A stretch of 64,000 nt of DNA from assembly GCA_918797485.1 (NCBI GenBank), contig CAKKNE010000006.1, positions 868,001 through 932,000 on the forward strand, given 5' to 3'. A program made the translations under genes and the position numbers. Below, piece after piece: positions 24,625 to 26,538 of this stretch (position 1 is its first letter; each line of letters starts with the position of its first letter). This DNA is from Pelagomonas calceolata. Its lineage: Eukaryota; Sar; Pelagophyceae; Pelagomonadales; Pelagomonadaceae. The notes beneath the pieces were generated by a model that was given only the letters and a program-made list of their open reading frames with translations, had not been told where the DNA came from and did not search any database.

Positions 24625-26538
24625 ATGCAGATCTTCGTCAAGACGCTGACGGGCAAGACCATTACGCTGGACGTCGAGCCGTCGGACACCATCGACAACG
24701 TCAAGCAAAAGATCCAGGACAAGGAGGGCATCCCGCCGGACCAGCAGCGCCTGATCTTCGCCGGCAAGCAATTAGAAGATGGAAGAACCCTGAGCGACTA
24801 CAACATCCAGAAGGAAAGTACATTACACTTGGTGCTGCGGCTGCGCGGCGGCGCCGAGGACGAGGGCGGCACGTGCTTCAAGGTCTGGAACTGCGTGGAA
24901 ATCAAATTTCAGGCGTTGGCCTTATCGACGCGACGTTGTCCTTGGAACTGCGTCTGCTCAATGGCGTGAAGCTATCGACGCGACGTTGTCCCCGTTCCTG
25001 CGGCAGCTCGATGGCGTGGAGGTTCACAAAGGTCTCCGCAATCATTCTCAGGTAACCTAACTCACTGGCCGATTCCACACAGGTCTGGAAGAAGGCCCGG
25101 ACGACGGTCCTCGTGCACAAGTCGCCGAAGCTGCAGATGATCGACGACCCGAAAGTGGTCATAACGCAGTACGCGGTGAGCGCCGTGGTGATCATCTACT
25201 TCCTGTTCAACATCTTCCAGAACTTCGGGTACATGAAGCTCGAGACGCCCTACGGCAGCACGAACATGTGGGCCGGGGGCTACGACGCCAGCAACGACGC
25301 GGGCCTCTGCTCGCGGCTCGCCGACTATGATTTCAAGTATTCCGACGCCTGGACGTACTACGACAACAAGTGCCGCCAGTTCACCTACGGCGAAGTGATG
25401 CGTAAACTCGAGGACGGCGGTTTTTATATACAGACCTACGTCCAGGACGAGGTGTCGACGTACACTGACTGCGGCGACAGCGCGACCGGCTGCCAGAACG
25501 TGTCTACCGTGAAGACGAACTACTTCGTGCCCGGCGTCGACGACATCGAGATCTCCGTCGAGCACGGCTTTACGGCCGTACAGCGGGGCGTGTCGAAGCT
25601 CATGCCAAAGACGACGGTCTGGAAGAAGTCGGGCGACTGGGAGGGTAAGAAAGACGACGACGCCGAACGACAATTCAACGAGAAGAAGCCGTTCGCCATG
25701 ACGCTCAAGGAGCTGCTGAAGCTCGCCGGCGTCGACTCGATCGACGCGCCGAACCACGCCGGCGCGGTCGCGGGCAGCGTGGGCGTGCCGACCTACCGCA
25801 TGACGGGCATGGTCATCGAGCTGCAGATCGACTACACGAACAAAATCCCCGGATACTACGAAGGGAGCGAGTACGTCGCGCGGGCGTCGATCGCCAAGGC
25901 CCCGATCGGCTGGGCCGGCCTGGGCGGCGCCACGGACTTCACGGCGCACGCGACGCCGTCGGCGGGCAACGCGGACGGCAGCTTCGAGACCTACGAGTCC
26001 TACTCGTACGGCGTCAAGATCGTCGTCGCCGCGACGGGCGAGATCGGCCACTTCGACTTCTTCTTCCTCATGGCCGTCGTGACCCAGCTACTCGTCTACT
26101 GGGGCCTCGGCGTCATCGCCGCCGAGTTCGTCGCGTCGTCGTTGCTGGGCGAGAAGCTGTGTGGAAATCAAAATTTTACGGCGCGTTCGTGCTGAATCGT
26201 CGCGTCGACCTCCACGCCATCGACGCGACGCCTGCTCGATGGCGTGGCGATGCCGGTTCCTCGCCGCTCGACGGAGCCAGCGCGGCCGCGTCATCGCCGA
26301 GAAATGACTTAGTGAAGAATTATCGGGTGCACCCGACACACTGTTTGATTTCCACACAGGCGAGAAGTCCGTGGACTACGTCGACGACCAGCGCGACTAC
26401 ACGCACTGCGTCAACCACCCCGAGTCGACGCGCGGCGAGCGGCCCGCGCACTGGACGAACCGCGAGGGCTGGGACAAGGACGACAAGCCCAAGAAGGGTG
26501 ATCCCGGGTCCATCGCCCGGGGCCTCGGAGCCCTCTAA
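24625..26538 (+). CDS. Ubiquitin fused in frame to a P2X-like ion channel
   Basis: Three exons (24625-24882, 25083-26148, 26360-26538) give 500 aa. Residues 1-76 are a complete ubiquitin (starts [12 protein letters not shown], ends LRLRGG). The frame continues without a stop: [10 protein letters not shown], then after intron 1 [18 protein letters not shown] (P2X-type TxK-like site), first membrane helix ([15 protein letters not shown]), a roughly 270-residue outer domain, [57 protein letters not shown] and the second helix. The last segments resemble Dictyostelium P2X in order and spacing. P2X proteins are trimeric ATP-gated cation channels, often vacuolar in protists. Ubiquitin would probably be cut off after GG, leaving a channel starting AEDEGG. 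The animal P2X cysteine pattern is absent, as in other protists. Confidence 0.85.
24883..25082 (+). mobile_element. Introner (TIR family) at the ubiquitin-channel junction
   Basis: GT-AG, 200 nt. GTCTGGAA flanks both sides. Ends are CTGCGTGGAAATC and CCGATTCCACACAG. Inside, CTATCGACGCGACGTTGTCC-like sequence is repeated in tandem (about 24922 and 24971), each copy followed by CTCAATGGCGTG or CTCGATGGCGTGG, so the core block has duplicated. Confidence 0.9.
26149..26359 (+). mobile_element. Introner (TIR family), GC-AG
   Basis: 211 nt. GCGAGAAG starts the intron and follows it. The element runs from CTGTGTGGAAATC to GATTTCCACACAG. The donor is GC from the duplication. Both CGCCATCGACGCGACG and CTCGATGGCGTGG cores are present, in opposite directions. 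Confidence 0.93.

What the first reader, a model, noticed from the sequence alone, without database searches (positions are those of the whole stretch)
24625..26538. Ubiquitin fused in frame to a P2X-like ATP-gated channel
A complete ubiquitin ending LRLRGG runs without a stop into [10 protein letters not shown] and, across an exactly spliced introner, into a two-helix channel with P2X-like order: N-terminal SPK site, first helix, outer domain with AGVDSIDAP and [25 protein letters not shown], second helix. Natural ubiquitin fusions are known mainly for ribosomal proteins S27a and L40. One to a ligand-gated channel would be new to me. Cleavage after GG would free a channel with a defined N-terminus and tie its output to ubiquitin output. 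The fusion is seen in sequence; function is inferred.
Basis: partly seen in the sequence, partly recalled or inferred. Interest (0 to 1): 0.85.

Follow-up and report, generated by a model that had tools for sequence, protein, structure and literature searches.

The report
Algal ubiquitin fused to P2X-like channel
In a window that looks like a small marine alga's genome, one gene encodes a complete ubiquitin joined in frame to a membrane protein distantly related to P2X channels; ubiquitin fusions to various partners are known in algae, this partner appears to be new, and the channel seems to lack the usual ATP-binding residues.

Summary
A complete ubiquitin (24625-24852, intact GG) runs without a stop into ten more codons, an introner with an exact 8-bp duplication, then a protein with two hydrophobic helices ending at 26538 after a second introner; 500 aa spliced. 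The junction is coding: its 27 codons have 100% GC at third positions, while introns and upstream DNA show no such bias, and it holds no ATG.

The P2X link is likely but remote. Pfam P2X scores 13.7 bits (cut-off 27) and hhalign gives 3.5%. But a profile of four animal P2X sequences scores it above all of 4000 shuffles and first of 274 window ORFs, and the 50-residue end aligns without gaps to human P2X7 (11 identities).

'ATP-gated' is not supported: four basic ATP-site residues align to W, G, H and Y. P2X relatives with poorly conserved ATP residues are published from a stramenopile (PMC5447177), as are varied algal ubiquitin fusions, some to membrane proteins (PMC6332867). My searches found no P2X partner. 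Fold prediction failed; no relative was found.

The parts
24625..24852 (+). ubiquitin unit, 76 codons, ends LRLRGG
   Evidence: Pfam ubiquitin 109.5 bits; 73 of 76 identical to recalled human ubiquitin, 7 of 7 lysines
24853..24882 (+). rest of exon 1, [10 protein letters not shown], no stop; the residue after GG is Ala
   Evidence: sequence; third-position GC 1.00 over the 27 codons of residues 77-103
24883..25082 (+). intron 1, introner of 200 nt, GTCTGGAA duplicated at its ends, GT-AG
25083..26148 (+). exon 2: N-terminal SPK region, first hydrophobic helix, outer domain, second hydrophobic helix
26149..26359 (+). intron 2, introner of 211 nt, GCGAGAAG duplicated at its ends, 16-nt perfect inverted repeats, GC-AG
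26360..26538 (+). exon 3: charged C-terminal tail and TAA stop
   Evidence: third-position GC 0.95 over residues 443-500

Best explanation
The gene encodes one precursor: ubiquitin, a 32-residue junction, then a P2X-related two-helix channel subunit. As the ribosome makes it, cytosolic ubiquitin hydrolases cut after Gly76 (inferred). This frees a standard ubiquitin and a channel subunit beginning [10 protein letters not shown]. Both ends of P2X subunits are intracellular, so ubiquitin would lie on the side where those enzymes work (inferred from P2X topology). The fused ubiquitin would help output or folding of the nascent membrane protein and tie its output to ubiquitin supply (inferred from ribosomal fusions). 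The channel is probably not opened by ATP in the animal way, because the ATP-site residues are missing; its ligand is unknown. Shown: the DNA-level fusion, coding character across the junction, introners whose removal restores the frame. Likely: a remote P2X relation. Not shown: transcript, cleavage, channel activity.
For: Open frame and exact 8-bp duplications at both introns. GC at codon positions 1/2/3 is 0.56/0.44/1.00 over the 27 codons of residues 77-103, against 0.52-0.63 in all phases of the two introns and 0.65/0.65/0.67 over the 49 codons upstream of the ubiquitin ATG; 27 of 27 GC third positions has chance 1.0e-6 at 60% GC and 8.9e-6 at 65%. No ATG in those 27 codons; reading back from exon 2, its frame meets a stop at 25053 inside intron 1 before any ATG. 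Ubiquitin intact. P2X relation: P2X_receptor is the only Pfam family of the nine listed that matches outside the ubiquitin part; a four-sequence P2X profile gives 9.2 bits, reached by 0 of 4000 shuffles, best 7.2; first of 274 ORFs at 8.7 bits, next 1.4; the ungapped 50-residue C-terminus has 9, 8 and 11 identities to human P2X4, P2X3 and P2X7, and 42 residues have 9 to zebrafish P2X4, with 0, 1, 0 and 0 of 20,000 shuffles reaching the score.
Against: Pfam P2X is below its curated cut-off (13.7 and 12 bits against 27), and 2 of 8 block-shuffled controls gave some chance family at E below 1, one at 0.024 (MHC_I), so the library scan alone is weak. Profile alignment by hhalign gave probability 3.5%, and its score was reached by 3 of 256 full and 1 of 256 block shuffles. 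No P2X chain in the PDB sequence search. The single-sequence fold is uninformative. No relative of the channel was found in IMG/VR or in the genome collection, so there is no comparative support for the fusion. Charges do not settle topology: junction 6 K/R and 5 D/E, C-tail 10 and 12, outer part 24 and 36. No RNA or protein data.
Confidence: 0.6

Rival explanations
1. The ubiquitin is not removed. It stays as a built-in sorting tag, three per trimer if the channel is trimeric, and sends the subunit to a vacuole or endosome.
For: Dictyostelium P2X proteins are reported on the contractile vacuole or inside the cell (PMC5447177 and PMC3853471, passages). Ubiquitin is a known sorting signal for membrane proteins (recalled). 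All seven ubiquitin lysines are present.
Against: Gly-Gly is intact and followed by Ala, which hydrolases normally accept (recalled).
Confidence: 0.15
2. Two products rather than one precursor: ubiquitin with a short tail, and a channel translated from its own transcript starting at Met105 in exon 2.
For: If intron 1 is kept, the ubiquitin frame ends 28 codons into the intron, at the stop 24967-24969 (ORF list). Met105 lies just before the first helix.
Against: The codons of residues 77-103 have full coding bias, and the SPK region upstream of Met105 aligns to the P2X N-terminus. Exon 1 has no stop of its own.
Confidence: 0.12
3. The partner is a two-helix membrane protein of another, undescribed family, and the P2X likeness is convergent or chance.
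For: Pfam below cut-off, hhalign 3.5% with 4 of 512 shuffles reaching the score, chance Pfam hits of similar strength in controls, ATP-site residues absent and 4 ectodomain cysteines against 10 in animals.
Against: N- and C-terminal matches are co-linear at the right ends of the profile and 0 of 4000 shuffles reach the score; top of 274 ORFs.
Confidence: 0.12

Closest known systems
Algal ubiquitin fusion genes of Bigelowiella natans and Guillardia theta (PMC6332867; abstract, section 4 and some passages read)
   Same: Ubiquitin in frame with an unrelated protein, most often one N-terminal unit; partners include integral membrane proteins; a ubiquitin-NiSOD fusion is reported in the pelagophyte Aureococcus.
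   Different: 'P2X', 'channel' and 'receptor' occur 0 times in its main text; its supplement was not seen.
Ubiquitin-S27a and ubiquitin-L40 (recalled; also named in PMC6332867)
   Same: One intact ubiquitin followed by a partner, cleavable after GG.
   Different: The partner here is a membrane protein, not a ribosomal protein.
P2X-related proteins of the stramenopile Halocafeteria seosinensis (PMC5447177, passages; taxonomy)
   Same: Two helices, large outer domain, cytosolic T/S-x-K/R site, ATP residues not or only partly conserved.
   Different: No ubiquitin fusion is mentioned in the passages seen.
Ostreococcus tauri P2X (PMC3853471, passages)
   Same: Algal P2X.
   Different: Keeps lysines equivalent to rat P2X2 Lys69 and Lys308 and is opened by ATP; no ubiquitin fusion in the passages seen.

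Membership tests
ubiquitin fusion precursor | intact ubiquitin ending GG, in frame with a partner, no stop between | tested here: met
ubiquitin fusion precursor | one transcript spans both parts | not testable with these tools
   no RNA data; only coding bias and introner anatomy
ubiquitin fusion precursor | cleavage after Gly76 | not testable with these tools
   residue after GG is Ala
P2X receptor | Pfam PF00864 gathering score of 27 bits | tested here: not met
   13.7 bits full protein, 12 bits exon 2
P2X receptor | two membrane helices around a large outer domain | tested here: met
   hydrophobic windows 109-136 and 399-442; residues 139-400 taken as outer part, 262; topology itself not tested
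P2X receptor | C-terminal YG...G..G.FD motif running into helix 2, with an acidic residue in the helix | tested here: met
   ungapped 50-residue match; human P2X4 Asp354 aligns to Glu434
P2X receptor | N-terminal T-x-K/R site before helix 1 | tested here: inconclusive
   S100-P-K102 aligns to T17-P-R19 of P2X4; Ser in place of Thr
P2X receptor | basic ATP-site residues K67, K69, R295, K313 of human P2X4 (roles recalled) | tested here: not met
   align to W149, G151, H375, Y393 (on alignment); N293, F294 and T186 align to T, A and A; the R295 and T186 regions are poorly aligned
P2X receptor | ten ectodomain cysteines of animal members | tested here: not met
   4; some protist members also lack some or all (PMC3853471)
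P2X receptor | P2X fold | tested here: inconclusive
   AlphaFold2 without relatives, mean pLDDT 39
introner | terminal inverted repeats, target duplication, splice donor taken from the duplication | tested here: met
   intron 1 has no inverted pair, only one end; splicing itself not shown

The most novel reading that the evidence does not exclude
Ubiquitin is a working domain of a channel: an uncut fused ubiquitin on each subunit routes a P2X-related channel to an internal compartment, and keeping or removing the introner right at the junction switches the gene between plain ubiquitin with a short tail and ubiquitin-channel.
Probability: 0.1. Interest if true: 0.8.

Novelty: new member of a known kind. 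Interest (0 to 1): 0.48.

Why it matters
It would extend natural ubiquitin fusions to a P2X-related channel and add a probable P2X relative to the photosynthetic stramenopiles, where a diatom-centred survey reported none (PMC11085791, passages). Ubiquitin, cleavage site and channel can each be tested in yeast, so whether fused ubiquitin helps or sorts a membrane protein could be asked in a natural case.

Tried and rejected
Fold prediction of exon 2 failed at mean pLDDT 39 for want of relatives; no fold search was run on it. Relatives were sought in IMG/VR with the channel (8 pattern matches, none confirmed), with its last helix region of 50 residues (27 pattern matches, none confirmed) and with ubiquitin (14 pattern matches, 10 loci; none has a P2X-like partner, judged by eye over 200 residues downstream), in genome contigs (49 pattern matches, none confirmed) and in phages (none). 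The window's own genome is not held. A longer precursor from the in-frame ATG at 24478 was rejected: codon-position GC there is flat. No second ubiquitin or channel copy in the window: best other channel match E 0.33. Rfam and tRNA scans were empty.

Literature searches for this fusion: 0 papers each; 20 of 52 listed; 1, off topic by title, not opened; 3, not opened; for algal or stramenopile P2X; for introners. None showed a ubiquitin-P2X fusion. The library holds open-licence papers only, and no supplement was seen.

Full report
What is there. The plus strand carries a three-exon gene, 24625-24882, 25083-26148 and 26360-26538, 1503 nt in frame. Exon 1 encodes a full ubiquitin (Pfam 109.5 bits; three differences from the recalled human sequence, seven lysines) and ten more residues, [10 protein letters not shown]. 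The introns, 200 and 211 nt, look like introners: each has an exact 8-bp duplication, and the end sequence, with up to one mismatch, recurs 12 times in the window against a shuffle mean of 0.00. Of five elements checked (four with both ends matched, plus intron 1), 4 have exact duplications and 1 has 7 of 8; four begin with GT and intron 2 with GC. Removing each from duplication to duplication restores the frame. The GC donor of intron 2 is inferred from this rule. Introners, donors taken from the duplication and rare GC donors are described in PMC9860276 (passages).

Is the junction coding? A stop-free run of 27 codons in GC-rich DNA is weak evidence. The codon-position test is stronger: third positions are GC in 27 of 27 codons of residues 77-103, with first and second positions 0.56 and 0.44. 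The rest of the gene has third-position GC of 0.84-0.98, while the introns (0.52-0.63 in every phase) and the 49 codons upstream of the ubiquitin ATG (0.65/0.65/0.67) show no such pattern. No ATG lies in those codons, and reading back from exon 2 its frame meets a stop at 25053 inside intron 1 before any ATG. So the channel's N-terminal segment, which includes the SPK site, is coding and has no start codon of its own; the next Met is residue 105, after SPK. An assembly join cannot be excluded without reads, but it would have to preserve this pattern.

What is the partner? It has hydrophobic windows at 109-136 and 399-442. Pfam gave PF00864 P2X_receptor at E 0.033 (full protein) and 0.11 (exon 2), below the curated cut-off, placed at the right end of the profile (301-352 of 361). 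Of eight block-shuffled controls, 2 gave some family at E below 1, one of them at 0.024, so this alone proves little. Asked as a named hypothesis it is stronger: a profile from four animal P2X sequences scores it 9.2 bits with two co-linear segments, and 0 of 4000 shuffles reach it (best 7.2; 2402 of the 4000 were listed by the program, the rest gave no reportable match). It is first of 274 window ORFs of 100 or more residues (8.7 against 1.4). The C-terminal 50 residues match human P2X4, P2X3 and P2X7 without gaps at 9, 8 and 11 identities, and zebrafish P2X4 over 42 residues at 9; the score was reached by 0, 1, 0 and 0 of 20,000 shuffles. The offset was chosen by eye, and shuffling breaks the hydrophobic pattern, so these counts are optimistic. 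Against: hhalign probability 3.5%, its score reached by 3 of 256 and 1 of 256 shuffles; no P2X in the PDB sequence search; uninformative fold. I judge a remote P2X relation likely, about 85%.

Is it ATP-gated? Human P2X4 K67, K69, R295 and K313 align to W149, G151, H375 and Y393 (on the alignment). The K313 column is tied to the conserved YG and is reliable, K67/K69 fairly so, R295 not; the middle of that alignment is poor. Four ectodomain cysteines are present. The acidic residue of helix 2 is kept as Glu434 in place of Asp354, which fits a cation pore. P2X-related proteins of the stramenopile Halocafeteria likewise keep the architecture and not the ATP residues (PMC5447177, passages; taxonomy). 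So 'ATP-gated' should be dropped.

How it most likely works. By analogy with ribosomal fusions, the ubiquitin is cut off after Gly76 as the chain is made, leaving free ubiquitin and a subunit starting with Ala. P2X subunits have intracellular N- and C-termini (PMC8199792, start of abstract in the listing), which would put the site within reach of the enzymes; charge counts here do not settle topology. The gain may be better expression or folding of the subunit; that the ubiquitin part is required for productive expression of yeast eL40 is the title claim of PMC6721733 (listing only). All of this is inference.

Known or new? Sibbald and colleagues (PMC6332867, section 4) list 22 ubiquitin fusion genes in B. 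natans and 10 in G. theta, with actin, NiSOD, ribosomal P1, integral membrane and other partners, and say that such fusions may be overlooked by automated annotation. This case is a new partner within that known kind. A survey of diatom Ca2+ channels reports no P2X in diatoms or in the other stramenopiles it assessed (PMC11085791, passages), whereas PMC5447177 reports P2X-related sequences in 150 of 359 MMETSP transcriptomes and names the diatom Pseudo-nitzschia fraudulenta among those with many. The two surveys disagree.

Surroundings. A TLC-domain ORF lies head-to-head (23456-24241, minus) and a proteasome subunit ORF tail-to-tail (26750-27652, minus; 170.8 bits). The proteasome neighbour is curious beside a ubiquitin gene, but one case in a compact genome is no evidence of a link.

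Noticed in passing
window 26750-27652 (-): Proteasome subunit ORF (Pfam 170.8 bits) tail-to-tail with the ubiquitin fusion gene.
   Followed up: partly
window 28910-31228 (+): One ORF joins a sulfate-permease domain, a STAS domain and a cyclic-nucleotide-binding domain.
   Followed up: no
window 24478-24624 (+): An in-frame upstream ATG would add 49 Ser/Arg-rich residues; codon-position GC is flat, so this is probably untranslated leader.
   Followed up: yes
L006 2451-2675, L007 2114-2338, L009 1929-2153: Three near-identical IMG/VR loci carry an 80% identical ubiquitin (residues 1-75) between a signal-peptide-like stretch and a tail that resembles an IPTL-CTERM sorting signal (recalled); possibly a secreted bacterial ubiquitin.
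   Followed up: no
L005 4001-4228; L010 4001-4213: Ubiquitin-like units without the GG end, fused in frame to more than 150 further residues of unknown kind in IMG/VR contigs.
   Followed up: no
window 10551, 32378, 48030: Introner ends without a matched partner. At 10551 and 32378 the reverse-complement flank starts with GT, as expected for the right end of minus-strand introners; at 48030 it does not.
   Followed up: partly
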